Source of the DNA: Paucibacter sp. Y2R2-4
Lineage (GTDB): Bacteria; Pseudomonadota; Gammaproteobacteria; Burkholderiales; Burkholderiaceae_C
Reading direction: 5' to 3'
DNA: 64,000 bases
Assembly (NCBI RefSeq): GCF_025717535.1
Contig: NZ_JAJIRO010000001.1
Span: 310,001-374,000, forward strand
Part shown: in pieces, positions 1-12,375 of the stretch
Layout: the number at the start of each line of letters is the position of its first letter
Numbering within the stretch: the stretch's first letter is position 1
The notes under the pieces: generated by a model
Database searches by the model: none
What the model was told of the DNA's origin: nothing
The model's input: only the letters and a program-made list of their open reading frames with translations
Program-made: the position numbers and the translations under genes

Positions 1-2
1 AC

Positions 3-650
3 CCAACCGGCTACGACCTGAGCAGCGCGCAATGGGCGCAAGTGGTCGAGGTGGTGAAAGCGCGCGGCTTGGTAGCCTTCTTGGACTTGGCCTACCAAGG
101 CTTTGGCGAAGGCATCCAGGAAGACGGCGCTGTGATTCAGCAATTTTTGGCCGCCGGCCTGGATTTCTTTGTGTCCACCAGCTTCTCCAAGAGTTTCTCG
201 CTCTACGGGGAGCGCGTCGGTGCCTTGAGCGTGGTGTGCAGCTCGGCCGAAGAAGCCGCGCGCGTGCTGAGTCAGCTGAAGATCGTGATCCGTACCAATT
301 ATTCCAACCCGCCGACTCATGGCGCGCAGGTGGTGGCGACCGTTTTGTCGACCCCGGCGCTGCGCGAACTGTGGGAAAAAGAACTGGCCGGCATGCGCTT
401 GCGCATCCGCGCCATGCGTGTGGCCTTGGTCGAAGCCCTGCAGGCCGCGGGCGTGCAGCAAGACCTGAGTTTTGTGACGCGCCAAAAAGGCATGTTCAGC
501 TACTCCGGTCTGTCGGCCGCTCAAATGCAGCGCCTGCGTAGCGAGTTCGGCATTTACGGCGTCGACTCGGGCCGCATTTGTGTGGCGGCCTTGAATGAGC
601 AGAACCTGCCCGCCGTCGCTCGCGCGATGGCCACCGTCATCAAAGGCTGA
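3..650 (+). CDS. Aromatic/aspartate-type aminotransferase, C-terminal part (5' end outside window)
   Basis: C-terminal 215 residues of a class I PLP aminotransferase of the TyrB/AspC type, which moves amino groups between aromatic or acidic amino acids and 2-oxoglutarate. The visible part opens with PTGYDLS, the end of the HNPTG substrate loop. The SFSKSFSLYGERVG block carries the Schiff-base lysine (codon 189-191), and DSGRICVAALN near the end holds the arginine that binds the substrate carboxylate. The frame is open to the window edge, so the start is missing. The stop at 648-650 is followed by a leader region for phaZ. Family assignment is firm; the choice of aromatic over aspartate specificity is an inference. 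Confidence 0.9.
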   Translation, partial: PTGYDLSSAQWAQVVEVVKARGLVAFLDLAYQGFGEGIQEDGAVIQQFLAAGLDFFVSTSFSKSFSLYGERVGALSVVCSSAEEAARVLSQLKIVIRTNYSNPPTHGAQVVATVLSTPALRELWEKELAGMRLRIRAMRVALVEALQAAGVQQDLSFVTRQKGMFSYSGLSAAQMQRLRSEFGIYGVDSGRICVAALNEQNLPAVARAMATVIKG

Positions 651-739
651 GCGGTCCAGGCCCCAAAGTCAGCAGGCAAGCTTCAATAAATCACCCTTTA
701 TTGGGGTTTTGCGAAACATACGCGGCCGAGCGGGCCTCG

Positions 740-809
740 TAAAATGCTGCAATGCACAAATTCAGGCAAGATAGATCTTGTGCACGACACGCGGGCCCTC
801 CGCCCGCGT
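740..809 (+). promoter_or_regulatory. phaZ leader: -10-like box, inverted repeat and hairpin
   Basis: Three elements precede phaZ. A TAAAAT -10-like box lies at 740-745, without a convincing -35. An inverted repeat TGCACAA (753-759) / TTGTGCA (778-784) straddles the expected transcript start; TGC/GCA-rich repeats are the kind of site bound by PhaR-type regulators of PHA genes, so this could be an operator. A perfect 8-base stem (789-796 with 802-809, loop CCTCC) follows, 29 bases before the ATG. Sequence elements are seen directly; the regulatory role is inferred. Confidence 0.35.
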
Positions 810-837
810 TCTTATTGCAAGCAAAGGACAGACGACC

Positions 838-2166
838 ATGCTGTATCAACTGTTTGAAACTCAGCGCGCGCTGATGAGTCCTTTCGCGGAGTTCGCGAGT
901 GCGTCGGCCAAGCTCTACAGCCACCCGCTCTCGCCGTTTTCGCATTCGCCGATGGCCCAACGGGTCTCAGCCGGCCTGGACCTGATGCACCGCCTGGGCA
1001 AAGACTACGAAAAGCCGGAATTCGGCATTCGCGGTGTGGAAGTCGACGGCGTGGAAGTGGCTGTGCAGGAACTCGTTCCGCTGACCAAACCGTTTTGCCG
1101 CCTCTTGCGATTCAAGCGCTACACCGACGATCTAACCGTCCTGTCCAAGATGAAGGACCAACCCACCGTCTTGGTGGTTGCGCCTTTGTCCGGCCACCAC
1201 AGCACCCTGCTGCGCGACACGGTGCGCCAACTGCTGAAAGACCACAAGGTCTACATCACCGACTGGACCGACGCTCGCATGGTGCCGCTGGAAGAAGGCC
1301 CCTTCCATCTGGACGACTACATCGCCTATGTGCAGGAGTTCATTCGCCATATTGGCGCGGACTGCCATGTGATCTCGGTTTGCCAGCCCACCGTGCCGGT
1401 GCTGGCCGCCATCTCTTTGATGGCCTCCAACGGCAAACAAACGCCGCGCTCCATGACCATGATGGGCGGCCCCATTGACGCCCGCAAGAGCCCTACCGCG
1501 GTCAACAACCTGGCCATGAACCGCAGCTTCAACTGGTTTGAGTCGAACGTGATCTACCGGGTGCCAACCAATTTCCCGGGTGCATCGCGGGCGGTTTACC
1601 CTGGCTTTTTGCAGCACACCGGTTTTGTGGCCATGAACCCAGACCGCCATCTGAGCTCGCACTACGACTACTTCCTCGACCTGGTGCGTGGCGACGATGA
1701 TGGCGCCGACTCGCACCGCCAGTTCTACGACGAGTACAACGCGGTGCTGGACATGCCGGCCGAGTATTACCTCGACACCATCAAAACCGTGTTCCAGGAC
1801 TTTGCGCTGGTCAACGGCACCTGGATCGTGAAGGGCCAGCTGGTTCGTCCGCAAGACATCACCGGCACTGCCCTGCTGACGGTGGAAGGCGAATTGGACG
1901 ATATCTCTGGCGCTGGGCAAACTCGTGCTGCCCATGAGCTTTGCTCAGGTATTTCGAGTGATCACCAGTACCACTACGACGCCATCGGTGCCGGCCACTA
2001 CGGCATTTTCTCGGGCCGTCGTTGGCGCGAAAAGGTCTATCCCGAAGTTCAAAAGTTCATCGCCAGCTACGACCGGCCTGATGCGCTGAGCTCGGAAGCC
2101 AAGGCAAGCCCAGCGGCAAAGACCCGCAGCGCTGCGCAAAAAACGTCGCGCAGCAAGCAGGCTTGA
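838..2166 (+). CDS. phaZ: Intracellular polyhydroxybutyrate depolymerase PhaZ
   Basis: 442-residue intracellular PHA depolymerase of the Cupriavidus PhaZ1 type, which hydrolyses native PHB granules in the cytoplasm to release 3-hydroxybutyrate units. The start at 838 is chosen over upstream frames because [15 protein letters not shown] matches the family N-terminus (MLYQLxExQRAxLxP) and an AAAGGA ribosome site precedes it. The nucleophile is a cysteine in [11 protein letters not shown] (Cys182), as in the intracellular class, instead of the serine of extracellular depolymerases. The protein has no signal peptide. The last 30 residues are Ala/Lys/Ser-rich and probably disordered. The rsxB-like gene starts 16 bases downstream, but no functional link is evident. 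Confidence 0.93.
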
Positions 2167-2182
2167 GTGTAGGTTCTTTGAC

Positions 2183-2869
2183 TTGAAAGAAAGTACTCTT
2201 GTCGCTTCAGAGCCCTTGCGGTCTTTGATTGCAAGCCTCGATGCGGCCTTGCCGCAAACCCAGTGCACCCGCTGCGGCTACCCTGATTGCCACAGCTATG
2301 CCGAAGCCGTGGCTAAGCAAGAAGCGGCCATCAACCAATGCCCGCCGGGCGGCGCCGAGGGCATTCGGCGGCTTGCTGTATTGACGGGCTTGCCGACTCT
2401 GCCCTTGAGTGCTGAACATGGCCAAGAAGGGCCGCTCAAGCTGGCGGTGATTGATGAAAGCTGGTGCATCGGCTGCACCCTGTGCATCAAGGCCTGCCCG
2501 GTGGACTGCATTGTGGGCGCGCCCAAGCAAATGCACTTGATCGTCAATGAACAGTGCACCGGTTGCGAGCTCTGTGTGCCGGCCTGCCCGGTGGACTGCA
2601 TTTCAATGGTCGAGCTTCAGCCAACGCTCACCGCTTGGGATGCCTGGAGCCCAGCACAGGCCGAACAGGCACGCGGCCGCTACCAGTTCCACCAACTGAA
2701 GCGCAGCCGCGAGACCCGTGAAAACGAGGCCCGCTTGCAGGCCAAGGCTGAGGCCAAGTTGGCCCATCTTGAAGAAGCGTCCAAGATCACCGATCCGCAA
2801 GAGCTGGACCGCAAGCGTGCGGTGATTGAAGCCGCTCTGGCGCGAGCAAGAGCCAAACGCCACGGCTAA
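2183..2869 (+). CDS. rsxB: RnfB/RsxB-like iron-sulfur protein
   Basis: 228-residue ferredoxin-like protein of the RnfB/RsxB group. An N-terminal four-cysteine cluster motif (Cys28, 31, 36, 53; [11 protein letters not shown]) is followed by two 4Fe-4S ferredoxin motifs, [15 protein letters not shown] (Cys95-109) and [15 protein letters not shown] (Cys125-139). The C-terminus is a charged Ala/Glu/Lys helix. The membrane anchor of canonical RnfB is absent, and no other rnf/rsx subunit lies nearby, so this is a solitary form. The likely start is TTG at 2183, as no ATG lies between the upstream stop and Cys28; another TTG at 2216 is possible. The role is probably electron delivery to an oxidoreductase, but the partner is unknown. 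Confidence 0.85.
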
Positions 2870-2898
2870 GCCGGACTGAACATTTGGCGATCGGGCAC

Positions 2899-3696
2899 TC
2901 AAGCCGCCGGCCAGTCCTCGCTCATGCCCAGTTGCACGCCGTGGATCGCCAGCATCTCTCCGGCATCCGCGCTAAGCCAAAACGCTCGTTCTCGCAGGCG
3001 TGCGGCCCGAATGGCATCCGGCCGCGTCCCTGAGGCCTCACGTCCCGGGTGGATCATCAGCAAGCCCGCATCCGGCAAACTGGCCAGGCAGCTCGCAATG
3101 AAGTCAGGCAACAAAGTCTCAGGACCAAAGCCGTAAACACCCGCAAAGTCCTGATTCATGCGCAAGCCTGCTTGGCGCGCACCCAGACGCAGCGCGGCCT
3201 CGCCTAATCCGGCAATCACCGCCGCTTTGAGCCCGCGCCAGTTGCGACTGCGCGTGGACCGCAAGGCGCAATCAACACCATAACGCCGAGTTAAAGCGTC
3301 TAAAACCGCCTCACGCACAACCGGCAGCTGATGCAGGTGCTGATGCCCATCCAGATAGGCCGGAGCGGATTGCATGGCCGACTCAAAGGCATCGAGCTGC
3401 TGCTCCACCCAATCCTTCACTTGCGAGGCCTGCAGCTGACCGAGGTAGCTGGCAGCAATCCATCCCTTCAAGTCTCGCCCTGGTGCGTACAGTGCAAACT
3501 CATTCAGATCGAGATGCAGGCCGTAATCAGCCATGTCAAGTCGATCGCGTAAGGCCGGCGCCCATTCTGACCAGTCCGGCGATAAGACCATGCAGCTGGT
3601 GGCGCTGATGCGCCCCGCATCAATGCACTCCAAAATCCCTAAGCTGACACCGGCATCAAAGCCGTAATCGTCGGCACAAATTTGGATGCGCTTCAA
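2899..3696 (-). CDS. lgmC: ChbG/YdjC-family sugar deacetylase (NaxD/LgmC-like)
   Basis: 265-residue carbohydrate deacetylase of the ChbG/HpnK/YdjC family. Metal and catalytic residues are visible: CADDYGF (Asp9-Asp10), GLHLDLNE (His61) and DGHQHLHQLP (Asp116, His118, His120). The start is the TTG at 3696-3694, which overlaps the upstream stop as TTGA; it gives the family-like N-terminus MKRIQICADDYGF, whereas a longer in-frame start at 3744 would run far into the upstream gene. It is the last gene of a four-gene minus-strand unit with ArnT-like, ArnC-like and GtrA proteins. That context suggests deacetylation of a polyprenyl-phosphate-linked HexNAc, as for NaxD of Francisella and LgmC of Bordetella. 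A hopanoid role (HpnK) is less likely because no hpn genes are near. Confidence 0.8.
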   Translation of the reverse strand: MKRIQICADDYGFDAGVSLGILECIDAGRISATSCMVLSPDWSEWAPALRDRLDMADYGLHLDLNEFALYAPGRDLKGWIAASYLGQLQASQVKDWVEQQLDAFESAMQSAPAYLDGHQHLHQLPVVREAVLDALTRRYGVDCALRSTRSRNWRGLKAAVIAGLGEAALRLGARQAGLRMNQDFAGVYGFGPETLLPDFIASCLASLPDAGLLMIHPGREASGTRPDAIRAARLRERAFWLSADAGEMLAIHGVQLGMSEDWPAA

Positions 3697-4094
3697 ACTT
3701 GCGCCCCGTTGGAGCCGCTCGCGCCATTCGAACGGAAGGCCCAAAAGCGACTCAAAAGCCAGGTCATGCCGGCGACGGCCACCAGCACCAAGAACAGGGC
3801 CAAGCGGTACTCCAAGCCCGCGCGAAGCAGCAAGGCATACAAGGCCTCATTGCTGACAAAGCCCAGCAGCGCCACGGCCGCAAAGCGCGGCAGCGCCTGG
3901 CGAACCTGGGCCTGTTGGGCCGCAAAGCTGAACCGATGATGACCGACAAAACTCACGCAAAAAGCGAGCAGAAAACCCAAGACATTGGCGAGCAAGGCGG
4001 CCAGATGAAACTGTTCCACCAGCCACCAGACCACGCCCAAATGCACCGCGGCAGCACTGGCGCCAACGAGGCCAAACCAAACCAATGAACTCAC
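3693..4094 (-). CDS. GtrA-family membrane protein, candidate lipid-linked sugar flippase
   Basis: 133-residue GtrA-like protein with about four membrane segments (approximately residues 5-25, 35-55, 75-95 and 102-122). GtrA-family proteins are thought to flip polyprenyl-phosphate-linked monosaccharides across the inner membrane. The start is GTG at 4094, overlapping the stop of the upstream glycosyltransferase as GTGA; its own stop overlaps the next gene as TTGA, so all four genes are probably translationally coupled. In this cassette it would move the deacetylated lipid-linked hexosamine outward before the ArnT-like enzyme uses it, the position of LgmD in the Bordetella model. Family call is good; flippase function is inferred. 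Confidence 0.75.
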   Translation of the reverse strand: MSSLVWFGLVGASAAAVHLGVVWWLVEQFHLAALLANVLGFLLAFCVSFVGHHRFSFAAQQAQVRQALPRFAAVALLGFVSNEALYALLLRAGLEYRLALFLVLVAVAGMTWLLSRFWAFRSNGASGSNGAQV

Positions 4095-5140
4095 TTGGAC
4101 TCCGGCGCTTGCAGCGGCGGGGTCAGGTCTTGCGTCACATACAAGGGGCGCTGCTTCACCTCATCAAAAACGCGCCCCAGGTACTCGGCAATGATGCCCA
4201 AGCACAGCAGTTGCACGCCCGCCAGGAAGGTGATGGACGCGGCCAAGGTGGTGAAACCACTCACCGGTTGGCCAAATACGGCCTTTTCCATCACGATCCA
4301 AAAACCAAAGCCGACCGACACCAAGGACACCATCAGACCGAGCACAGACACCAGCCGCAGCGGCATCTTGGTGAAGGCCGTCAGCCCCACGACGGCGAAG
4401 GACAAAAGCTGCATATAGCCAAAGGTCGACTCGCCGTGCAAGCGAGCGTCTGGTACGTACTCGAGAGCCTTGGCCTTGAAGCCCACCCAAGCGAACAAGC
4501 CCTTCATATAACGCGCGCGCTCAGGCAGGCGCCGCAGCACCAAGACCACTTTGCGATCAAGCAAGCGGAAGTCGCCGGCATTAGGCGGCATATCGACCCG
4601 CGAGCCGTGGCGCATCAGCCAGTAAAAAACCTTGGTATAGCTACGACGCGCCAAGGACTGAGATTCGCTGCGGCCCTTTTGTACGGCGTACACCACGTCA
4701 AACCCTGCGCGCCAGTCCTCCAGCATCTGCAGTGCGCTACTGATGGGGTGCTGCCCGTCAGAATCCATGATGATGACCGCGTCTCCATCGGCGGCATCCA
4801 AACCAGCACACAGCGCCGCTTCTTTACCGAAATTGCGCGACAGCCGCAGCAACCGCACGGGCAGGCCCTGGGCCATCAGGCTTTGAACCACCAGGACGGT
4901 GTCGTCGCTGCTGCCATCGTCAATCACCAGCAACTCCAGTTGCTGAGCCTGACCGCTCAATTTCAGGCTCAGTTCTGGCAGCAAGATGGCCAGATTGCGC
5001 GCTTCGTTGAAGGCCGGCAAAACGATGCTGAGCAGCCGCGGCTTGTCGCGAACGCTGTCGCTGAGCAGCCCGCCGGGCCTATCAACGGCCTGCTGCTGAG
5101 GAGTCAAGTTGGAAGTAGTGCTGGTTTGCATCAGAGTCAT
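4091..5140 (-). CDS. lgmA: ArnC/DPM-type glycosyltransferase family 2 (polyprenyl-phosphate sugar synthase)
   Basis: 349-residue GT2 enzyme. A GT-A domain contains LSIVLPAFNEARNL, VIDDGSSDDT and the metal-binding IIMDSDGQHP (DSD at 126-128). Two C-terminal membrane helices (about 230-285 and 290-325) are typical of ArnC/GtrB/DPM1-like polyprenyl-phosphate glycosyltransferases. The start is ATG 5140, which overlaps the upstream stop as ATGA; an in-frame start 11 codons earlier lies inside the upstream gene and is unlikely. The expected reaction is transfer of a sugar, here probably GlcNAc or GalNAc, from a UDP-sugar to undecaprenyl phosphate. The neighbouring deacetylase is the main reason to favour HexNAc over 4-formamido-arabinose. 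Symbol assigned by analogy to Bordetella lgmA. Confidence 0.78.
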   Translation of the reverse strand: MTLMQTSTTSNLTPQQQAVDRPGGLLSDSVRDKPRLLSIVLPAFNEARNLAILLPELSLKLSGQAQQLELLVIDDGSSDDTVLVVQSLMAQGLPVRLLRLSRNFGKEAALCAGLDAADGDAVIIMDSDGQHPISSALQMLEDWRAGFDVVYAVQKGRSESQSLARRSYTKVFYWLMRHGSRVDMPPNAGDFRLLDRKVVLVLRRLPERARYMKGLFAWVGFKAKALEYVPDARLHGESTFGYMQLLSFAVVGLTAFTKMPLRLVSVLGLMVSLVSVGFGFWIVMEKAVFGQPVSGFTTLAASITFLAGVQLLCLGIIAEYLGRVFDEVKQRPLYVTQDLTPPLQAPESK

Positions 5141-6609
5141 TTGCTTTCGGAGCCATCGTCGGGCACCAGGCACTGGTCCTTGTTGCAGGCCAGGGCTGTT
5201 GCGCGCAACTCCGATTGTCTATCGACACGCAGCACTTTGAACGCAGGACGACCCGCTACACCTGGCATGCCCGCATAGAGCCGGCCCGAGGTGTAGAAGT
5301 AGGCCGAGTAATTGGGTTTGCCGGCATAGCTGAGCTTGCAATCTTGCGTCAGGCAAGCCTGGCGATAGGCCTCAATCAAAGGCAGATCTGAATTGGCCCG
5401 GCTGATCTGCGGCAGCTTGAACACAAAGGCCCAGGCGTACAAAAGCGCCAAGGCCGAGAAGCTCAAATAACTGGCGGAGCGACGCAGCCAAGTCTCAGGC
5501 AATAGCGCAATGGCCAGAATCACCAGCCCCGGCAAGGCCGTCATTGCGTAGGTGAAGATCAGGTTCCGAGCAGCGCTGAACAAAAGCAAGGGGGCCAAGG
5601 CAATGCACAGGGCATAGCAGGCCAAGTCAATCTTGCGGCCGGCCTCCAGAGAACTCTGGCTGCCCAGTTGAAGTTGCGCTGTGATCGCGCCCCGCCCTTG
5701 TTTGAAGCGCAGATAGGGCAGACGCCCCAGCAGGACCACGACCGCCGGCAAGGCCGCTACCAAGGTGAACAACCAGATCATGCCCAAGGGCTGGGCATGC
5801 GCGAATCCATAGCGATCGCCCTTCCACCCAGGCTGCAGGAAACGCATCACATGCTCACCCAGCACAAAGTACTCAACAAAGCCGGGGGTCTTCAATTCAG
5901 CCATGACATACCAGGGCAAAGCCACGCCCAAGCAAATCAGCCAAACCCAGAGATCAGAGGCAACGGCGCGCACTTCGGTCCAATGTTTGCGCCAGGCGGC
6001 ATGCATGAACACAGGCAAGAGCGCCAGTACCGCGGCGGCCGGTCCCTTGGTCAACAAGGCCAAGGCCATGCCAAAAGCAAGCCATCGCGCGGCGCGTTGG
6101 CGTGAGGCGCCCTGCGCCGCCAACACCCGCCACCAAGCAGCTTGCACAAAGATCACGGCAGCACCCAGCGTGGCATCGGTCATGACCGCGCCGGCGCTGA
6201 TGAAGAACAAAGGGCACAAAGCCAGCAAAACCTGCGCCGCCAGAATCTGCAAGCGACTGAAGACGCCGTCCAGCATCCAAGCCAGGGCCAGCACACCCAT
6301 CACGCTCCACAGCACCGCGGCCAAACGGCCGGACCATTCGCTGATGCCGAACAGGCTCATCAAGATGGCCTGCCCCCAAGTAGACAAAGGCGGCTTGGCC
6401 CAAAAAACCTCGCTGGGCGTGATGTGGGGGCTGATCCAGTCTGCGGTCTGCACCATCAGCCTAGCGATCTCGGCGTAGCGCGCCTCGGTGTGGTCGGTCA
6501 ATGGCAGCAATGGCAAGGTCAGCAGTCGCAGCAGCAAGATGCAGAGCAGCAAAACAAGCCAGGGTCTGAGCGCGGCGTTTGACGACGTTTTTTCGGACGG
6601 ACGAGACAT
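5137..6609 (-). CDS. lgmB: ArnT/PMT-family glycosyltransferase (lipid A hexosamine transferase candidate)
   Basis: 490-residue polytopic glycosyltransferase of the ArnT/GT39-GT83 type. After the first membrane helix comes the acidic periplasmic loop LTDHTEARYAEIARLM, with the conserved (T/D)E-R-Y pattern of ArnT, followed by EVFWAKPPLSTWGQ. About ten further hydrophobic segments lead to a soluble C-terminal domain of roughly 90 residues. The start at 6609 (MSRPSEKTSSN) sits just before the first membrane helix; longer starts at 6639-6642 are possible. It is the first gene of the four-gene unit, and its stop overlaps the next start as ATGA. The predicted role is transfer of a hexosamine from undecaprenyl phosphate to lipid A phosphate on the periplasmic side, reducing negative charge. 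Acceptor and donor are inferred. Confidence 0.78.
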   Translation of the reverse strand: MSRPSEKTSSNAALRPWLVLLLCILLLRLLTLPLLPLTDHTEARYAEIARLMVQTADWISPHITPSEVFWAKPPLSTWGQAILMSLFGISEWSGRLAAVLWSVMGVLALAWMLDGVFSRLQILAAQVLLALCPLFFISAGAVMTDATLGAAVIFVQAAWWRVLAAQGASRQRAARWLAFGMALALLTKGPAAAVLALLPVFMHAAWRKHWTEVRAVASDLWVWLICLGVALPWYVMAELKTPGFVEYFVLGEHVMRFLQPGWKGDRYGFAHAQPLGMIWLFTLVAALPAVVVLLGRLPYLRFKQGRGAITAQLQLGSQSSLEAGRKIDLACYALCIALAPLLLFSAARNLIFTYAMTALPGLVILAIALLPETWLRRSASYLSFSALALLYAWAFVFKLPQISRANSDLPLIEAYRQACLTQDCKLSYAGKPNYSAYFYTSGRLYAGMPGVAGRPAFKVLRVDRQSELRATALACNKDQCLVPDDGSESK

Positions 6610-6707
6610 GGACAGGGTGAGACGGTGGAATGCCGGCATCATGCCACCGCTTCTCTGCAAATCCAGCGAGCTGTGGTCAGCCCGTCCAGAGGAGACAATG
6701 GCAAGCA

Positions 6708-7349
6708 ATGAACGCTCAGCACATTCAAACTTTCTTCGAAACCTTGCGCGCCGCCAATCCCGCGCCTCAGACCGAACTGGAGTACGCCAGTGTCTTTGAG
6801 CTATTGGCCGCCGTGCTGCTGTCGGCTCAGGCCACCGATGTGGGAGTCAACAAAGCCACGAGGCGCTTGTTTGTGGTGGCCAACACGCCTGAAAAAATGT
6901 TAGCGCTGGGTGAGCCTGGGCTGTGCGAATACATCCGCACGATTGGGCTGTTTCGCAGCAAGGCCAAGCACTTGATCGCCACTTGCCAGATCTTGATCGA
7001 ACAGCATGGCGGCAAGGTGCCCAATACCCGCGAAGCGCTGGAGGCGCTGCCCGGCGTGGGTCGAAAGACCGCCAATGTGGTGCTCAACGTAGCTTTCGGC
7101 CAAGCAGCCATGGCGGTGGATACGCATATTTTTCGAGTGAGCAATCGAACCGGACTCGCGCCAGGAAAAACGCCTCTGGCGGTTGAGTTGGGGCTGATGA
7201 AAAGAATCCCAGCCGAGTTCATGGTGGACGCCCACCATTGGCTGATTCTGCATGGCCGCTATGTCTGCAAGGCTCGCACCCCCTTATGTGCAAGTTGCAG
7301 CGTGGCGGCTCAATGTGATCATGGCCGCCTACAATTCAAGTCTGCCTAG
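6708..7349 (+). CDS. nth: Endonuclease III (Nth), base-excision repair DNA glycosylase/AP lyase
   Basis: 213-residue endonuclease III, which removes oxidised pyrimidines and nicks abasic sites. The helix-hairpin-helix LPGVGRKTANVVLN carries the catalytic lysine, and VDTHIFRVSNR supplies the catalytic aspartate. The C-terminal 4Fe-4S loop is present with spacing C-x6-C-x2-C-x5-C (CKARTPLCASCSVAAQC). The start at 6708 gives MNAQHIQTFFETL and the E. coli length (211); a GGAG lies 13 bases upstream. It is divergent from the lipid A cassette with 98 bases between starts. In E. coli nth follows the rsx operon; here the cassette lies between the rsxB-like gene and nth. Confidence 0.95.
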   Translation: MNAQHIQTFFETLRAANPAPQTELEYASVFELLAAVLLSAQATDVGVNKATRRLFVVANTPEKMLALGEPGLCEYIRTIGLFRSKAKHLIATCQILIEQHGGKVPNTREALEALPGVGRKTANVVLNVAFGQAAMAVDTHIFRVSNRTGLAPGKTPLAVELGLMKRIPAEFMVDAHHWLILHGRYVCKARTPLCASCSVAAQCDHGRLQFKSA

Positions 7350-7365
7350 GGAGCCACGGGGAACC

Positions 7366-7581
7366 ATGCCAAGCATCACCGACTTGATCGACCGCGTCGA
7401 GCGCCTGCTGCTCCGCCACGACGAATTGAAACGCACCAACACCCTCTTGCAGGAGCAGGTGAAGGAGCTGAGCCACGAGCGCGACAACCTGCGCTCGCGT
7501 CTGAACGCAGCCAGAGCACGCATTGACGTACTGTTGGAACGTCTGCCTGTAGAAAACGAATCCGGAAAGAGTTCTTCGTGA
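7366..7581 (+). CDS. Small coiled-coil protein (TIGR02449/ZapB-like) upstream of zapA
   Basis: 71-residue acidic/basic coiled-coil protein starting MPSITDLIDRVERLL after a GGGGA ribosome site. Almost the whole length (residues 5-60) shows heptad hydrophobics with charged flanks. It resembles the short coiled-coil family that commonly precedes zapA in proteobacteria and is ZapB-like in size and architecture. Its stop overlaps the zapA GTG start as GTGA, so the two are probably translated together, suggesting a role in Z-ring organisation. This role is inferred from context. The gene begins 16 bases after nth. Confidence 0.75.
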   Translation: MPSITDLIDRVERLLLRHDELKRTNTLLQEQVKELSHERDNLRSRLNAARARIDVLLERLPVENESGKSSS

Positions 7582-7895
7582 AGCAAATGGAAGTGACCAT
7601 CATGGGCCAGAGCTATCTGCTCGGCTGCCCCGACGGCGGCGAGGCCGCCCTGAGCAAGGCGGTCGGCCAAGTCGACCGAGAAATGAGCGCGATCCGCGAC
7701 GCTGGGCGCGTCAAAGCCCGTGAACGCATCGCCGTTCTTGCCGCATTGAATCTGGCTTATCAGTTGGCGGATGGGTCCGCCCCTGCGCCGAGCGCACCAC
7801 AAGTTGCGGCGAATGGATCCGAATCCCTACCCGACCTTGAAGGTCTGATGCGTCGCCTTGACGAAGCCCTCGGCCACGACGGGCAATTGCTCTAA
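7578..7895 (+). CDS. zapA: Cell division protein ZapA
   Basis: 105-residue ZapA, which binds and cross-links FtsZ filaments at midcell. The N-terminal globular head (MKQMEVTIMGQSYLLGCP) and the alanine-rich coiled-coil tail with ARERIAVLAALNLAYQL are the family features. The start is GTG 7578, in a GTGA overlap with the preceding coiled-coil gene. A 6S RNA gene follows 40 bases after the stop, the zapA-ssrS order seen in many gamma- and betaproteobacteria. The last 25 residues are low-complexity and slightly longer than in short homologues. Confidence 0.9.
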   Translation: MKQMEVTIMGQSYLLGCPDGGEAALSKAVGQVDREMSAIRDAGRVKARERIAVLAALNLAYQLADGSAPAPSAPQVAANGSESLPDLEGLMRRLDEALGHDGQLL

Positions 7896-7923
7896 GGCCA
7901 TCGGTTTGTCACGACGCTGGGCT

Positions 7924-7929
7924 TAGAAT
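7924..7929 (+). promoter_or_regulatory. -10 element of the 6S RNA promoter
   Basis: TAGAAT lies 7 bases before the predicted 5' end of the 6S RNA closing stem, the spacing expected for a sigma-70 -10 box. No good -35 hexamer is visible at 16-18 bases upstream (TTGTCA at 7906 is too close). Confidence 0.5.
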
Positions 7930-7935
7930 CACTTC

Positions 7936-8113
7936 CGTCCATTGCGTTCGCGTGAGCTTTATATGTCCTTGAACCAATGCTCTCTGAGCAAGGGCTTGGA
8001 ATATCGCCCAGCAAGCGTGATCGTCTCGCGTCAGATGAACCCAATGCTCGGCTGACCTCGCCCACCTGAACCCCTGGTTCAGGACTGCGGCTCACGGTTC
8101 GCGGTGGACACCT
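7936..8113 (+). ncRNA. ssrS: 6S RNA
   Basis: About 178 nt of non-coding sequence after zapA folds as 6S RNA, which binds sigma-70 RNA polymerase by mimicking an open promoter. The 5' strand GTCCATTGCG and GTGAGC pairs with the 3' strand GCTCAC and CGCGGTGGAC, forming the long closing stem. A second paired region (GTCC at 7965-7968 with GGAC at 8081-8084) follows, and a large internal bubble lies in the middle. The 3' half ACCTGAACCCCTGGTTCAGG resembles the conserved E. coli segment that follows CACCTTGAACC. Position downstream of zapA and length support the call. Exact ends are approximate. Confidence 0.82.
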
Positions 8114-8198
8114 TATTCCTGATTTCAGGCCAAATCGCAGCACCTTGCGATCCCAAGGCCTGAAGCTTGCTCCCCCAACTTCTCTTGTCGGCACGCTC

Positions 8199-8654
8199 TT
8201 GAACTACTGGCTGATGAAGTCCGAGCCCAGCGAGTGCTCGATCGACGATCTCGAACTTGCGCCCAATCAAACGGTGCCATGGATTGGGGTACGTAACTAT
8301 CAGGCTCGCAACTTCATGCGCGACCAGATGCGCATCGGCGACGGGGTTCTGTTCTATCACTCATCCTGCCTAGCGCCCGGCATTGCTGGTTTGGCCACAG
8401 TGGCCAGCGAGGCCTACCCCGACGCGACGCAGTTCGACCCGAGCAGCCCCTACTTCGACGCCAAGGCCAGCTTGGAATCGCCGCGCTGGTTGCATGTCGA
8501 CGTGAAGTTTGGAAAAAAGACCCGGCTGCTCAGCTTGGCTGAGCTTCGAGCCGACCCCGCTCTGCAAAGCCTAAGAGTGCTGCAACCCGGCAGCCGGCTC
8601 TCGATCACGCCAGTTACGCCGACCGAATGGCAAATGCTGCTGGACAGGCTCTGA
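8199..8654 (+). CDS. EVE-domain protein
   Basis: 151-residue single EVE (PUA-like) domain protein. The N-terminal NYWLMKSEPSECSIDDL and the pocket block WIGVRNYQARNFMRDQMRIGDGVLFYHSSC are characteristic. EVE domains are read as binders of modified bases in DNA or RNA. The start is placed at TTG 8199 because it gives the usual (M)xYWLMKSEP beginning; ATG 8214 inside that motif is the alternative. No clear ribosome site is seen for either. It lies about 85 bases after 6S RNA. A stand-alone EVE gene in this conserved neighbourhood is probably housekeeping, not part of a defence island. Confidence 0.85.
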   Translation: MNYWLMKSEPSECSIDDLELAPNQTVPWIGVRNYQARNFMRDQMRIGDGVLFYHSSCLAPGIAGLATVASEAYPDATQFDPSSPYFDAKASLESPRWLHVDVKFGKKTRLLSLAELRADPALQSLRVLQPGSRLSITPVTPTEWQMLLDRL

Positions 8655-8717
8655 TGCAGGGCGCCGTCTTGCCGATACATAGCAAACGGCCAAGTCGACT
8701 CGATTGACGCAGTGGCG

Positions 8718-9740
8718 TCAGTTGATAAAGGGGATGGAAGCCAATACGACCTGGTTGCCACCACGCCGCTGCGCTTCTTGCACTGCCGCTTCGCTGGCCG
8801 ACACCAGCTCTTCCTGCTTCGAGGCCGTGTGAGGAAAACTCGACACTCCCATCGAAATCGACAGCCCCATATCGACGCCGTTCAGCACGATGATCTGAGC
8901 CGTACATTGGCGACGCAATTGCTCCATGCGGGCATGCGCTGTCGCCAGGCCCACGCCTGACAAGAGCACGGCAAAGCGCGTTTCGCCAATCCGGCAGGCC
9001 GCATCCATGGCGCGTGTATTGGCGCGCAACATGCGTCCCATGCCTTCCAGCAAGCGCTGATTCGCCTCTTCGCCCATGGCCTGCGCGGCTGCTGGCACCG
9101 GATCTAAAGCAATGATGACCAGCGCGAATTCCCGGTGTTCGCGGGTGGAGAGATCAATCTCGCGCAAGAGCTGATCGTCGAACTGGGCGCGCAAATACAG
9201 ACCCGAGGTGTCGTCCCGCCCCGAGCCTTGCTGCAGCTCACGGCGGATTTGCTCGATGGTTTTCTGCTGTTGCTCGATCTGCTGTAAGGCACGCTGCAGA
9301 TGCGTCTCTCGGTGGCGCTCCTCAGTGCGCTCACGCCAAACTGCCAGGATGTGATCCGTTCCCAAGGGCGCTCGGGTGACCGTGAACTCACGCCGACGCC
9401 CAGCCAATTCAAGCCTATGCTCGCTAACGACCATGCTGCGCTGAGCCATGACCGCCTGTTCGACCCGACGCATGCCGATCACTTCGTCGGCTCGCATCAA
9501 ATCGTTGTCCAAGCTTCCGACCAAACTGCCCTGCCCGAATAAATGCTCAAGACCCGCGCTGCCATAGACATAACGCCCTGAGGCCAGTGACTTGATGGCC
9601 GCGAATGCATCCAAAGGTTCGATCAAACTCAGGACCGCTTCCCCCAAGCCCGAAGCCAATTCAGGCTGGCTGGCCAGCCATTGAGCCAAAGACTTCTGTC
9701 CTGGCACGGCATCGTCAAAAGCTGCGGCTGATATGTCCAT
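8718..9740 (-). CDS. PAS-like sensor with degenerate GGDEF domain
   Basis: 340-residue cytoplasmic protein. Residues 30-140 look like a PAS-type sensory fold (GRYVYGSAGLEHLFGQ, FTVTRAPLGTDHILAVW). A coiled coil (about 140-175) follows, then a GGDEF-like domain (175-340). The signature region reads RIGETRFAVLL, so GGDEF is replaced by GETRF (residues 252-256). The metal-binding and catalytic acidic positions are changed, so diguanylate cyclase activity is unlikely. It may bind c-di-GMP or act by protein contact. The start at 9740 has a GAGGA site 5 bases upstream; an in-frame GTG at 9770 is less likely. It is convergent with the EVE gene. Confidence 0.75.
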   Translation of the reverse strand: MDISAAAFDDAVPGQKSLAQWLASQPELASGLGEAVLSLIEPLDAFAAIKSLASGRYVYGSAGLEHLFGQGSLVGSLDNDLMRADEVIGMRRVEQAVMAQRSMVVSEHRLELAGRRREFTVTRAPLGTDHILAVWRERTEERHRETHLQRALQQIEQQQKTIEQIRRELQQGSGRDDTSGLYLRAQFDDQLLREIDLSTREHREFALVIIALDPVPAAAQAMGEEANQRLLEGMGRMLRANTRAMDAACRIGETRFAVLLSGVGLATAHARMEQLRRQCTAQIIVLNGVDMGLSISMGVSSFPHTASKQEELVSASEAAVQEAQRRGGNQVVLASIPFIN

Positions 9741-10109
9741 GAATCCTCGAATGCTCTTTGCCCCGTCCACTGGTCTTGCTGCATCCAGTGCCGGTTGATC
9801 GACCTATGTGTCGGAAATGTAGTGGGCTTCGGCTTGCCTGATCAAGTGGACTTCATCATGCCCGGAGCTCTTCCCCCTAGCTTGGCAGCAAACCGATACC
9901 AGCAAGGATTGAGTGCGATGGTATCAATGCACAAACACTTGAAGCGCCCAGCTGGCTGAACTATCGCACCAGGAGACTCCGTTGAGTGCGAGAGTTAAGG
10001 GGCTCCAGCACCTCATCTGCGGGACAATGCCCGAACTTGGAGGCGCGCATGCCTGCCCAAGAGGGCTGAACCCAAGCCAGACACAGCTTTACTTAGAAAA
10101 ACAAACCCC
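9741..10109. other. Intergenic region between the GGDEF-like gene and the flavoprotein gene
   Basis: 369 bases between two divergent genes. I see no credible coding frame or RNA gene. The only structure noticed is an inverted repeat GATACCA (9895-9901) / TGGTATC (9919-9925) with a 17-base spacer, which could be an operator but is short enough to be chance. Confidence 0.4.
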
Positions 10110-11327
10110 ATGCACAGTTTTGACTTGGTCGTCGTCGGTGCCGGTGCAGCCGGCCTTTTTTGCGCAGGCATGGCCGGTCAAGGCGGTCAGCGCGTGCTCT
10201 TGATCGACCACGCAGAACGGGTCGCCGAGAAGATTCGCATCTCAGGCGGCGGCCGTTGCAACTTCACCAACCGTGACGTCGGGCCTAACAATTTTTTGTC
10301 CGACAACCCTGCTTTTTGCCGATCGGCTTTGGCGCGTTACAGCAGCCAGGACTTCATCGCACTCGTGCAAAAGCACGGCATCGCTTTCCACGAGAAGCAC
10401 AAAGGTCAGCTGTTCTGCGATGACTCCAGCGAACAGATCATTCGCCTGCTTCTGAATGAGTGCGAGGTCGGCGGGGTTGAGCGTTGGCAGCCCTGCACCG
10501 TGCTCGATGTGCAGCAGCAAAGCGAACAAAAAGAGGGTTTCATCATCGAAACCTCGCGTGGCCAGGTTCTTGCTCGCCGACTGGTGATCGCAAGCGGCGG
10601 ACTCTCCATCCCCAAAATTGGCGCCAGCGATTGGGGCTTGCGGCTGGCTAAGCGTTTCGGCCACAAGATTGTGGAGCCTAGGCCTGCGCTGGTGCCCTTG
10701 ACCTTTGACGCCGAAGCTTGGGCGCCCTTCTCCGCCTTGTCGGGACTCTCGCTGCCGGTCACAGTCAGCACCGGCAAAGGTAAGTCTGGCGGGCGCTTTC
10801 TCGAAGACTTGCTGTTCACCCATCGCGGCTTGAGTGGCCCCGCAATTTTGCAAATCTCCAGCTTTTGGACGGAAGGCCAAGCCTTGCAAATCAACCTGGC
10901 CCCCGACGCTGATTTGCAAGAGCAACTCAAGGCCGCCAAATCCGACTCGCGTCGCCAAGTAGGCAATTTGCTGGCCACGATGCTGCCGCAACGCCTGGCT
11001 CAAGCCTGGCTGGAGCGTCTCGGCTTGCCGAGCAATCGGGCCATGCCTGAATGCAAAGACAAAGACCTGCAAAACCTCGCCAAGCAACTACAGGCTTGGA
11101 GCTTGACGCCCAATGGCAGCGAAGGCTGGCGCAAGGCCGAGGTGATGCGTGGCGGCGTTGACACACGCGAATTGAGCTCACAAAGCCTGGAAAGCAAGCG
11201 CGTGCCCGGCCTGCATTTCATTGGAGAAGTGGTGGATGTGACCGGCTGGCTGGGGGGCTATAACTTCCAGTGGGCGTGGTCCAGCGCGGCAGCTTGCGCA
11301 AGATCTATCTGCGAGACTATGGAATAA
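10110..11327 (+). CDS. YhiN/HI0933-family FAD-dependent oxidoreductase
   Basis: 405-residue flavoprotein of the HI0933/YhiN (BaiN-like) family. The N-terminus is a dinucleotide-binding Rossmann motif, LVVVGAGAAGLFCAGMAGQ, followed by the family block KIRISGGGRCNFTN. Near the C-terminus GLHFIGEVVDVTGWLGGYNFQWAWSSA closes the FAD site. Length is normal for the family (about 390-410). The substrate is not established for most members. The gene is monocistronic here, with the rpsU leader beginning right after it. The family call is strong and the function open. Confidence 0.9.
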   Translation: MHSFDLVVVGAGAAGLFCAGMAGQGGQRVLLIDHAERVAEKIRISGGGRCNFTNRDVGPNNFLSDNPAFCRSALARYSSQDFIALVQKHGIAFHEKHKGQLFCDDSSEQIIRLLLNECEVGGVERWQPCTVLDVQQQSEQKEGFIIETSRGQVLARRLVIASGGLSIPKIGASDWGLRLAKRFGHKIVEPRPALVPLTFDAEAWAPFSALSGLSLPVTVSTGKGKSGGRFLEDLLFTHRGLSGPAILQISSFWTEGQALQINLAPDADLQEQLKAAKSDSRRQVGNLLATMLPQRLAQAWLERLGLPSNRAMPECKDKDLQNLAKQLQAWSLTPNGSEGWRKAEVMRGGVDTRELSSQSLESKRVPGLHFIGEVVDVTGWLGGYNFQWAWSSAAACARSICETME

Positions 11328-11342
11328 GTGTGAAAATCAGGC

Positions 11343-11348
11343 TACAAT
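11343..11348 (+). promoter_or_regulatory. Possible -10 element upstream of rpsU
   Basis: TACAAT lies 16 bases after the flavoprotein stop and about 160 bases before the rpsU start. No strong -35 is visible at the expected spacing. If used, it gives a leader that contains the hairpin at 11392-11423 and the small ORF at 11437-11514. Confidence 0.4.
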
Positions 11349-11391
11349 CGCTGTCTTTGCTGGCAAACCCTGCGCGTCGATTCGCAACATT

Positions 11392-11423
11392 TTTGAAGCG
11401 GAATCCGGAAAAGCCGCTTCAAA
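11392..11423 (+). promoter_or_regulatory. Perfect 10-bp hairpin in the rpsU leader
   Basis: TTTGAAGCGG (11392-11401) pairs perfectly with CCGCTTCAAA (11414-11423) around a 12-base loop. No T-run follows, so it is not an intrinsic terminator. It lies 14 bases before the small leader ORF and 88 bases before rpsU. A role in regulating rpsU (for instance feedback by S21) is possible but unproven. Confidence 0.5.
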
Positions 11424-11436
11424 CACGGGGTTCAAA

Positions 11437-11514
11437 ATGATTCTGCAAGGAGTCGATTTGAACGAAGTGATTGACGAACACCGAGCGCATATTGAAGGAA
11501 ATACTTTTTCATGA
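11437..11514 (+). CDS. 25-codon leader ORF overlapping the rpsU start (ATGA)
   Basis: A short ORF begins [16 protein letters not shown] and ends at the TGA of 11512-11514, which overlaps the rpsU ATG (11511-11513) as ATGA. A GGGG lies 7 bases before its ATG, and GAAGGA near its 3' end serves as the rpsU ribosome site, so both could be translated, with coupling. Composition is plausible for a peptide, being acidic and soluble. It could be a coupling or leader peptide or a chance frame; conservation of the ATGA junction in relatives would decide. It is too short to judge by codon use. Confidence 0.4.
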
Positions 11515-11723
11515 CCACGATTCGCGTCAAAGAGAATGAGCCGTTTGATGTGGCTCTGCGCCGTTTCAAGCGCACTATCGAAAAACTGGGCCTGCTGACC
11601 GATCTGCGCGCCCGCGAGTTTTACGAGAAGCCCACGGCTGAGCGTAAGCGCAAGAAGGCTGCTGCCGTCAAGCGTCACTACAAGCGCGTTCGCAGCATGC
11701 AGCTGCCCAAGAAGCTGTACTGA
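11511..11723 (+). CDS. rpsU: 30S ribosomal protein S21
   Basis: 70-residue S21, a basic small-subunit protein near the anti-Shine-Dalgarno region of 16S rRNA that aids initiation. [25 protein letters not shown] and the Arg/Lys-rich C-terminus ([15 protein letters not shown]) are diagnostic, and length matches the family. The ribosome site GAAGGA precedes the ATG. The start overlaps the stop of a 25-codon leader ORF, and a strong terminator lies about 77 bases downstream, so it is expressed largely on its own. It is not followed by dnaG/rpoD as in E. coli, but by yqeY. Confidence 0.97.
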
Positions 11724-11800
11724 TTTTCGACTTTGCTAGCGCCTTTGGGCGCTGAAACGAAAATCGGCTCAAGCCGAAGCAGCTGAACAAGCTCAAGAAC

Positions 11801-11836
11801 AAGGCCCGCACAGGACGCTGTCGCGGGCCTTTTCTT
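11801..11836 (+). terminator. Intrinsic terminator after rpsU
   Basis: AAGGCCCGC (11801-11809) pairs with GCGGGCCTT (11823-11831), followed by TTCTTT. Strong GC stem with 13-base loop. Confidence 0.85.
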
Positions 11837-11928
11837 TGCGCAGCCCACTTTGCTTGGCACGTCTTTGCCTTCATCTATTTGCCCTCACAATTTCACCCAA
11901 GCCCTTTTACCGAGCTAAAGGATTCGCC

Positions 11929-12375
11929 ATGAGTTTGAAAGACCGCATCACCGAAGACATGAAGGCCGCGATGCGCGCCAAAGAGGCTGACAAGCTGGTC
12001 ACCATTCGAGGTCTGCTGGCCGCCGTGAAGCAAAAAGAAGTGGATGAGCGCATCGTTGTAGACGATGTCGCCTTGGTGGCCATCGTTGACAAGCTGATCA
12101 AGCAACGCAAAGACTCCATCAGCCAATTCACCGCCGGCGGTCGCCCGGACTTGGCCGAAAAAGAAGCGGTCGAGTTGAAAGTGCTGGAAGCTTATTTGCC
12201 CCAGCGCATGAGCGCCGAGGAAGTGCAGACAGCGGTCAATGCCATCGTCAGCGAACTGGGCGCCAAGGGCCCGGCCGATATGGGTCGAGTCATGGCCGCC
12301 GTGAAGGCGCAACTGAGCGGCAAGGCTGAGATGTCTTTGGTCTCGGTCGCAGTCAAGCAAGCCCTCAGCCAGTGA
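11929..12375 (+). CDS. yqeY: GatB/YqeY domain protein
   Basis: 148-residue YqeY family protein, homologous to the C-terminal domain of GatB, which contacts tRNA in the amidotransferase. It starts MSLKDRITEDMKAAMRAKE after an AAAGGA site, and contains IRGLLAAVKQKEVDE and ELKVLEAYLPQRMS typical of the family. Length is standard. YqeY is commonly linked to rpsU in bacteria, as here. Its exact function is unknown; an accessory role in tRNA or translation is assumed. Confidence 0.92.
   Translation: MSLKDRITEDMKAAMRAKEADKLVTIRGLLAAVKQKEVDERIVVDDVALVAIVDKLIKQRKDSISQFTAGGRPDLAEKEAVELKVLEAYLPQRMSAEEVQTAVNAIVSELGAKGPADMGRVMAAVKAQLSGKAEMSLVSVAVKQALSQ

What the first reader, a model, noticed from the sequence alone, without database searches (positions are those of the whole stretch)
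2899..6609. Four-gene overlapping cassette resembling a lipid A hexosamine (lgm/naxD) pathway, between rsxB and nth
Seen: an ArnT-like transferase, an ArnC-like GT2, GtrA and a ChbG/YdjC deacetylase in one strand with three 4-base overlaps (ATGA, GTGA, TTGA). Known: in Francisella (FlmF2, NaxD, FlmK) and Bordetella (Lgm proteins) these families load undecaprenyl phosphate with HexNAc, deacetylate it, flip it and attach hexosamine to lipid A phosphates, giving resistance to cationic peptides. Inference: this organism decorates lipid A with glucosamine or galactosamine. The cassette lies between two genes (rsxB, nth) that neighbour each other in many genomes, hinting at insertion.
Basis: partly seen in the sequence, partly recalled or inferred. 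Interest (0 to 1): 0.72.

Follow-up and report, generated by a model that had tools for sequence, protein, structure and literature searches.

The report
Sugar-decoration cassette with a swapped transferase
Four overlapping genes look like a pathway that makes a positively charged sugar on a lipid carrier, flips it outward and attaches it to the cell envelope, as known lipid A systems do, but the last enzyme comes from a different branch, so its target is open.

Summary
In detail: an ArnT-like GT-C, a GtrB/ArnC-type GT2, GtrA and a YdjC deacetylase lie on the minus strand at 6609-2899 with three 4-base overlaps, between rsxB and nth. The deacetylase lies on the NaxD/LgmC side, not with HpnK or ChbG, and the GT2 in the group of the Bordetella and Acinetobacter cassettes. 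The gene set is common in Burkholderiales, so the system is not new. The terminal transferase, however, is not LgmB-type. It falls in another clade (100/100; AU p 6.7e-5) with a displaced first-loop Asp; the relatives examined outside Burkholderiales, 14 genome and 5 plasmid loci, have no deacetylase beside them. The genome also holds a stand-alone LgmB-side transferase about 160 kb away. Insertion is supported: two of 18 same-genus genomes have rsxB directly beside nth. Best reading: undecaprenyl-phosphate-hexosamine is made, flipped and put on the envelope, most likely on LPS; whether on lipid A phosphate is unproven. A new variant of a known kind.

The parts
5137..6609 (-). Terminal GT-C glycosyltransferase (ArnT-like, GT39 in annotations; motif LTDHTEARYAEIA...FWAKPPLSTW), here called clade II
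   Evidence: Pfam PF02366 57.7 bits; C. metallidurans ArnT 5ezm E 2.2e-14; trees
4091..5140 (-). GT2 polyprenyl-phosphate sugar synthase (GtrB/ArnC-type), group found with deacetylases
   Evidence: Pfam PF00535 91.3 bits; GtrB sll0501 258 bits; trees
3693..4094 (-). GtrA-type membrane protein, candidate flippase (GTG start)
   Evidence: Pfam PF04138 74.6 bits
2899..3696 (-). YdjC/NaxD-type carbohydrate deacetylase (TTG start); D9, D10, H61, D116, H118, H120, R146, H216 identical in 70 of 70 NaxD-side rows
   Evidence: Pfam PF04794 146.5 bits; below the HpnK and ChbG cut-offs; conservation (one Sphingomonas row left out); trees
5137..5140 (-). ATGA overlap, GT-C stop / GT2 start
   Evidence: sequence
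4091..4094 (-). GTGA overlap, GT2 stop / GtrA start
   Evidence: sequence
3693..3696 (-). TTGA overlap, GtrA stop / YdjC start
   Evidence: sequence
2183..2869 (+). Left flank: RsxB-like Fe-S protein (convergent with the cassette)
   Evidence: Pfam Fer4_21 and FeS
6708..7349 (+). Right flank: endonuclease III, nth (divergent from the cassette)
   Evidence: Pfam HhH-GPD

Best explanation
The cassette is a NaxD/Lgm-type envelope amino-sugar pathway with an exchanged last enzyme. The GT2 loads N-acetylhexosamine from its UDP-sugar onto undecaprenyl phosphate; the YdjC enzyme removes the acetyl group on the cytoplasmic side; GtrA helps the lipid cross the membrane; the GT-C transfers the free hexosamine to a periplasmic acceptor, most likely LPS (lipid A phosphate or inner core), which lowers the negative surface charge. 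Shown here: gene families, overlaps, the groups in which GT2 and deacetylase fall, conserved polar residues of the deacetylase, the different clade of the GT-C, and empty sites in relatives. Inferred: every substrate, the flipping step, the acceptor and the physiological effect.
For: Families. The deacetylase lies with A. baumannii NaxD and the Bordetella/Achromobacter cassette deacetylases, split from HpnK and ChbG by a 100/100 branch and 98 in the larger quick tree. The GT2 sits in the group with the Bordetella, Achromobacter and A. baumannii GT2s (100/99); of the 66 rows of that group, 64 come from deacetylase loci (most rows were sampled through the deacetylase), and joining the window clade to four gtrB rows is rejected (AU p 3e-63). 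Of 68 loci with a NaxD-type YdjC, 66 carry the GT2, 59 GtrA and 46 an ArnT-like gene in the stretch fetched. Same four families in Bordetella genomosp. 2 and Achromobacter veterisilvae and in A. baumannii. In B. pertussis lgmA-C are required for GlcN on lipid A and lgmD is not essential (PMC4993483, passages).
Against: The GT-C that decides the acceptor is not in the clade of the Bordetella and A. baumannii enzymes. The position of ArnT Asp55 is a threonine, with an Asp two residues earlier, and Glu84 is an alanine (alignment, residues counted by me). Clade-II relatives outside Burkholderiales have no deacetylase beside them (0 of 14 loci; none annotated at 5 plasmid loci, and no match of the deacetylase on those plasmids), so their sugar may be neutral. 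No lipid A chemistry of this organism was available.
Confidence: 0.6

Rival explanations
1. Sub-case of the best reading: a plain Lgm/Arn-like system, in which the clade-II transferase, despite its sequence, puts hexosamine on lipid A phosphates as LgmB does, giving cationic-peptide resistance.
For: Same gene set as in Bordetella and A. baumannii; ArnT is the only relevant relative among solved structures.
Against: Separate clade (AU p 6.7e-5); displaced first-loop Asp; a stand-alone LgmB-side transferase exists elsewhere in this genome.
Confidence: 0.4
2. Two-target system: the cassette makes the Und-P-hexosamine; the stand-alone LgmB-side GT-C uses it for lipid A, the cassette GT-C for another acceptor such as LPS core, another polysaccharide or protein.
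For: The only strong GtrB/ArnC-type GT2 found in the genome is the cassette's (760 bits; next 32 bits). The stand-alone GT-C groups with GT-Cs of two deacetylase cassettes (100/99) and has no GT2, GtrA or YdjC match in the 14 kb around it. 8 of 17 genomes with the cassette deacetylase have such an LgmB-side extra GT-C.
Against: 9 of the 17 show none, so it is not obligatory; the extra GT-C could use a donor made by an unrelated enzyme.
Confidence: 0.2
3. A GtrA-GT2-GT39 system whose final sugar is neutral: the deacetylase acts on something else, for example a free oligosaccharide.
For: Outside Burkholderiales, clade II was found without a deacetylase (0 of 14 loci; 5 plasmid loci).
Against: The window's GT2 is of the type found with deacetylases; the deacetylase gene overlaps GtrA by 4 bases and is kept in 7 of 7 site-mates.
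Confidence: 0.1

Closest known systems
Bordetella lgmABCD (lipid A glucosamine modification)
   Same: The same four families (GT2, ArnT-like, YdjC, GtrA) in one cluster of Bordetella genomosp. 2 and of Achromobacter veterisilvae; GT2s in one 100/99 group and deacetylases on one side of a 100/100 branch.
   Different: The transferase is from another clade; here all genes are on one strand with overlaps, in those two loci GtrA points the other way. B. pertussis itself did not appear, and I took the two loci for lgm from their gene content.
Acinetobacter baumannii naxD operon (naxD-GT2-GtrA-GT39 before gyrA)
   Same: The same four families on one strand, overlapping or closely spaced; GT2s in one group, deacetylases on one side.
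   Different: The GT39 there is LgmB-side (PDEGRY...HKPPL), here clade II; gene order differs. That this gene is the published naxD rests on its being the only YdjC place at E <= 1e-8 in each of four records.
Francisella NaxD, FlmF2, FlmK
   Same: FlmF2 and FlmK are tied to galactosamine on lipid A (PMC4688374, passages); naxD was first found in F. novicida (PMC9431647, passages).
   Different: No Francisella sequence was compared here.
Three-gene GtrA-GT2-GT39 cassettes on plasmids (Marinobacter, Paracoccus, Sulfitobacter, Pantoea, Pseudomonas kurunegalensis), called gtrABM-like after the P. putida locus in PMC3056050 (passages)
   Same: Their GT39 is in the same clade II.
   Different: No deacetylase annotated beside them; most of their GT2s lie in another group, the Paracoccus and Sulfitobacter ones being exceptions. 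The P. putida locus of the paper was not compared, and the cassette GT39 of C. metallidurans pMOL30 (L159) is not in clade II, so the name gtrM does not define the clade.
E. coli ArnC/ArnT (L-Ara4N on lipid A)
   Same: Fold family and pathway logic.
   Different: P0001 scores 92.6 against a cut-off of 567 for the ArnT equivalog, P0002 141 against 529 for ArnC.

Membership tests
Lgm (Bordetella lipid A glucosamine) system | Cluster of GT2, ArnT-like GT-C, YdjC deacetylase and GtrA | tested here: met
Lgm (Bordetella lipid A glucosamine) system | LgmB-type terminal transferase | tested here: not met
   Window's clade apart from that of the Bordetella/Achromobacter enzymes, 100/100; AU p 6.7e-5 (groups named)
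Lgm (Bordetella lipid A glucosamine) system | LgmA-type GT2 | tested here: met
   Same 28-row group, 100/99
Lgm (Bordetella lipid A glucosamine) system | Glucosamine on lipid A phosphate, BvgAS control | not testable with these tools
   needs mass spectrometry and expression data
NaxD/LgmC deacetylase | Groups with NaxD/LgmC rather than HpnK or ChbG | tested here: met
   100/100 branch, 98. Not excluded: that the window clade is the deepest branch of the NaxD side (AU p 0.109)
NaxD/LgmC deacetylase | Conserved polar residues of the NaxD side | tested here: met
   D9, D10, H61, D116, H118, H120, R146, H216 identical in 70 of 70 rows
NaxD/LgmC deacetylase | Deacetylates Und-P-HexNAc | not testable with these tools
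   enzyme assay needed
HpnK (TIGR03473) | Score over the curated cut-off 232.6 | tested here: not met
   36.1 bits; three HpnKs from related genomes score 359-399
ChbG (NF002559) | Score over the curated cut-off 227 | tested here: not met
   44.0 bits
ArnT (NF009784) | Score over the curated cut-off 567 | tested here: not met
   92.6 bits
Three-gene GtrA-GT2-GT39 (gtrABM-like) cassette | GT39 of the clade found in such plasmid and gammaproteobacterial cassettes | tested here: met
   26-row clade, 100/100; the C. metallidurans pMOL30 GT39 lies outside it
Three-gene GtrA-GT2-GT39 (gtrABM-like) cassette | gtrB-group GT2 and no deacetylase | tested here: not met
   GT2 in the other group, AU p 3e-63; YdjC present

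The most novel reading that the evidence does not exclude
A modular pathway in which one Und-P-hexosamine supply serves two transferases of different clades: a stand-alone LgmB-side enzyme for lipid A and the cassette's clade-II enzyme, with a shifted first-loop Asp, for a second acceptor not known to be modified by a hexosamine system.
Probability: 0.18. Interest if true: 0.55.

Novelty: new variant of a known kind. Interest (0 to 1): 0.4.

Why it matters
It suggests that envelope amino-sugar pathways are modular: donor synthesis and deacetylation are of one type while the acceptor-choosing enzyme is exchanged. Calling such cassettes 'lipid A modification' from the gene set alone is therefore unsafe. 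The two GT-C clades give a testable sequence rule, and the empty sites within one genus offer natural comparisons with and without the cassette.

Tried and rejected
Recent acquisition by base composition: no sign, GC is 0.59-0.62 across the cassette and similar in the flanks. HpnK or ChbG identity: rejected. A second strong GT2 of this type in the genome: none found. Rfam match in window 1-12000 at gathering score: none. Promoter or terminator evidence: 0 promoter-like sites (shuffles 0.8) and 2 terminator-like sites (shuffles 5.4), so no statement on transcription.

B. pertussis, Francisella and Chromobacterium sequences were not compared. Paper searches: 10 of 10 used; 'gtra' with 'glycosyltransferase family 39' and 'lipid a' gave 0 papers, 'gtrabm' gave 1.

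Dropped rows and limits: one search left out 11 ArnT rows and E. coli ArnT; one search used 42 of the 89 GT2 rows, which itself left out E. coli ArnC and two rows; one search used 36 of 79 YdjC rows; one search left out one Sphingomonas row; one search used 36 of 75 GT39 rows for its tree. The motif pattern was written after seeing the motifs (34 type II, 40 type I, 1 other of 75), and the groups of the AU tests were named after seeing trees. Loci were sampled through the deacetylase or the GT39, so co-occurrence counts are not population frequencies. Trees are quick ones. One mis-framed query ('ZapB') was replaced; one search was an idle script.
Full report
OBSERVATION. On the minus strand the window holds an ArnT-like protein (6609-5137), a GT2 (5140-4091), GtrA (4094-3693, GTG start) and a YdjC protein (3696-2899, TTG start), with ATGA, GTGA and TTGA overlaps. 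Pfam confirms PMT, Glycos_transf_2, GtrA_DPMS_TM and YdjC well above the gathering cut-offs. The flanks are an RsxB-like Fe-S protein (2183-2869) with a PHB depolymerase-like gene before it, and nth (6708-7349) followed by zapA and an EVE-domain gene.

WHERE ELSE IT OCCURS. A search with the deacetylase hit 79 of 200 genomes of the same family, own included; 8, own included, have a protein at least 57% identical. All 7 others carry the four genes in the same order between PhaZ-RsxB and Nth; they span five genera counting the window's own. More distant deacetylases also come with the same partners. I fetched stretches around 74 further loci: 51 of the 78 non-own genomes, 20 of the 30 non-own genomes (31 of 200 genomes of the order matched), and 3 from Bordetella and Achromobacter. 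With the window that makes 75 loci, of which 68 have a NaxD-type YdjC (over 250 bits to my model) and 7 another kind. Of the 68, 66 have the GT2, 59 GtrA and 46 an ArnT-like gene in the stretch. The gene set is therefore common in Burkholderiales.

NAMED COMPARATORS. Bordetella genomosp. 2 and Achromobacter veterisilvae (genomes reached through) carry GT2, ArnT-like, GtrA on the opposite strand, and YdjC. I take these as lgm loci from gene content; I saw no paper testing them, and B. pertussis did not appear. In B. pertussis, lgmA, lgmB and lgmC are needed for glucosamine on lipid A and lgmD is not essential (PMC4993483, passages). That the GtrA gene corresponds to lgmD is my inference. A. baumannii has YdjC, GT2, GtrA and GT39 in a row before gyrA; each of four A. 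baumannii records has one YdjC place at E <= 1e-8, so I take it as naxD. A 2022 paper states that the enzymes moving and attaching the sugar there had not been identified (PMC9431647, passages).

DEACETYLASE. It scores 36 bits against HpnK (cut-off 232.6) and 44 against ChbG (cut-off 227); three HpnKs from related genomes score 359-399. In a 36-row tree a 100/100 branch separates HpnK, ChbG and two relatives from all 30 NaxD-side rows, window included; the 79-row quick tree gives 98 for the corresponding split. The order inside the NaxD side is not resolved: holding the window clade together with the HpnK/ChbG rows is not rejected (AU p 0.109), meaning that the window clade could be its deepest branch. 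D9, D10, H61, D116, H118, H120, R146 and H216 are identical in 70 of 70 NaxD-side rows (one Sphingomonas row left out).

GT2. The quick tree splits into a group of 66 rows, 64 of them from deacetylase loci (the Paracoccus and Sulfitobacter plasmid rows are the other two), and gtrB rows, of which four (L083, L089, L109, L112) are from deacetylase loci. Rows were sampled through the deacetylase or through the GT39, so these are not population frequencies. The window is in the first group with the Bordetella, Achromobacter and A. baumannii GT2s (100/99 in the 42-row tree). Forcing six window-clade rows and L082 together with four gtrB rows is strongly rejected (AU p 3e-63).

TERMINAL TRANSFERASE. 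In the 48-row tree the ArnT-like proteins form two clades beside E. coli ArnT: 32 rows with the Bordetella, Achromobacter and A. baumannii enzymes (100/99), and 15 rows with the window and its site-mates (100/100). With relatives from elsewhere added, the window's clade has 26 of 60 rows at 100/100, and joining the window clade to the LgmB side is rejected (AU p 6.7e-5; groups named). The motifs differ: PDEGRY...HKPPL in the first, mostly D-x-T-E-A-R-Y...FW[A/G]KPPL in the second. Against C. metallidurans ArnT the window's T41 lies under the catalytic-site Asp (D55 in the published numbering), with D39 two residues earlier, and A71 under E84 (alignment, residues counted by me). A paper on this fold calls the D55/E56 position the active site and E84/K85 metal contacts (PMC7801869, passages). 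The LgmB-side enzymes keep the Asp but have His at the E84 place. A shifted alignment in which D39 takes the role of D55 is possible.

CLADE II ELSEWHERE. In a sample of 299 genomes of the phylum, 72, own included, matched at E <= 1e-10. I fetched 20 stretches. The 14 strongest, none from the window's order, all carry the clade-II motif; 0 of 14 have a YdjC gene, 13 of 14 a strong GT2 and 12 of 14 a GtrA match in the stretch (one GtrA lies several kilobases away, and one stretch is only 4.8 kb). Five plasmid relatives show GtrA, GT2 and GT39 beside two-component or metal-efflux genes, none with an annotated deacetylase (the gene tables are incomplete), and none of these plasmids is among the 20 records matched by the deacetylase at E <= 1e-8. 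A P. putida review calls such a set gtrABM, near czc genes (PMC3056050, passages); its locus was not compared here. The name is not the clade: the GT39 of the cassette on C. metallidurans pMOL30 (L159) lies on the other side of the tree. The window's cassette thus looks like deacetylase-type donor genes joined to a clade-II transferase. Seven other deacetylase loci outside the window's clade also have a clade-II transferase (L082, L083, L089, L109, L136-L138).

A SECOND TRANSFERASE. The genome has another GT39 at G000:C1:474776-476413, outside the window, about 160 kb away, with the LgmB-side motif. It groups at 100/99 with transferases of two deacetylase cassettes. No GT2, GtrA or YdjC match lies in the 14 kb around it, and the only strong GtrB/ArnC-type GT2 found in the genome is the cassette's. 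Among 21 genomes searched, 17 have the cassette deacetylase; 8 of the 17 have an LgmB-side extra GT39 (this one, one 80% identical, and 6 of another subgroup at 38-40% identity), 9 do not. This makes a shared donor possible, not shown.

INSERTION. Of 18 same-genus genomes, 11 have the cassette's ArnT-like gene beside nth, 2 (G793, G794) have RsxB directly beside Nth, 4 have other genes beside nth, and 1 is at a contig edge. In G793 and G794 the tblastn ends of RsxB and Nth are 73 and 87 bases apart, and neither genome has a match to the deacetylase. Three of the four with other neighbours have the deacetylase elsewhere; the fourth, G785, has no match. Of 12 loci outside the genus, 4 have RsxB beside Nth. 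I infer an old insertion into an rsxB-nth junction, followed by losses and rearrangement. GC content gives no sign of a recent event.

MECHANISM AND SCORES. Best reading (0.6): Und-P-HexNAc synthesis, deacetylation, flipping and transfer of hexosamine to an envelope acceptor, most likely LPS. Lipid A phosphate in particular stays open because the acceptor-choosing enzyme is not of the LgmB type. The sugar (GlcN or GalN) cannot be told. Interest 0.4: a common pathway kind, with a clear, testable exchange of the last enzyme.

Noticed in passing
L149:6001-9808 (A. baumannii CP040041.1): The only YdjC place (E <= 1e-8) of this record is followed by GT2, GtrA and GT39 genes before gyrA: candidates for the flipping and attachment enzymes that PMC9431647 calls unidentified.
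   Followed up: partly
L149 and hits H16-H19: Four A. baumannii records in the plasmid collection (0.56-4.1 Mb; the first has serC and gyrA beside the match) look, by size or genes, like chromosomes or pieces of them filed as plasmids.
   Followed up: no
L074 (G783:C8:197000-208000): Bordetella genomosp. 2 has a second LgmC-like deacetylase without GT2, GtrA or ArnT-like matches in the 11 kb around it; it is sister to the one in the cluster (100/97).
   Followed up: partly
L153-L157: GtrA-GT2-GT39 cassettes with clade-II transferases on plasmids, beside two-component systems or metal efflux genes, one with an IS26.
   Followed up: partly
L084, L085, L090, L095, L098, L113, L126: GT2-GtrA-YdjC loci without a strong ArnT-like match in the stretch fetched (L098 has a 33-bit one); their terminal transferase is unknown.
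   Followed up: no
window 838-2869: The PHB depolymerase-like gene and rsxB stay together in the cassette-bearing site-mates and in the two empty-site genomes.
   Followed up: partly
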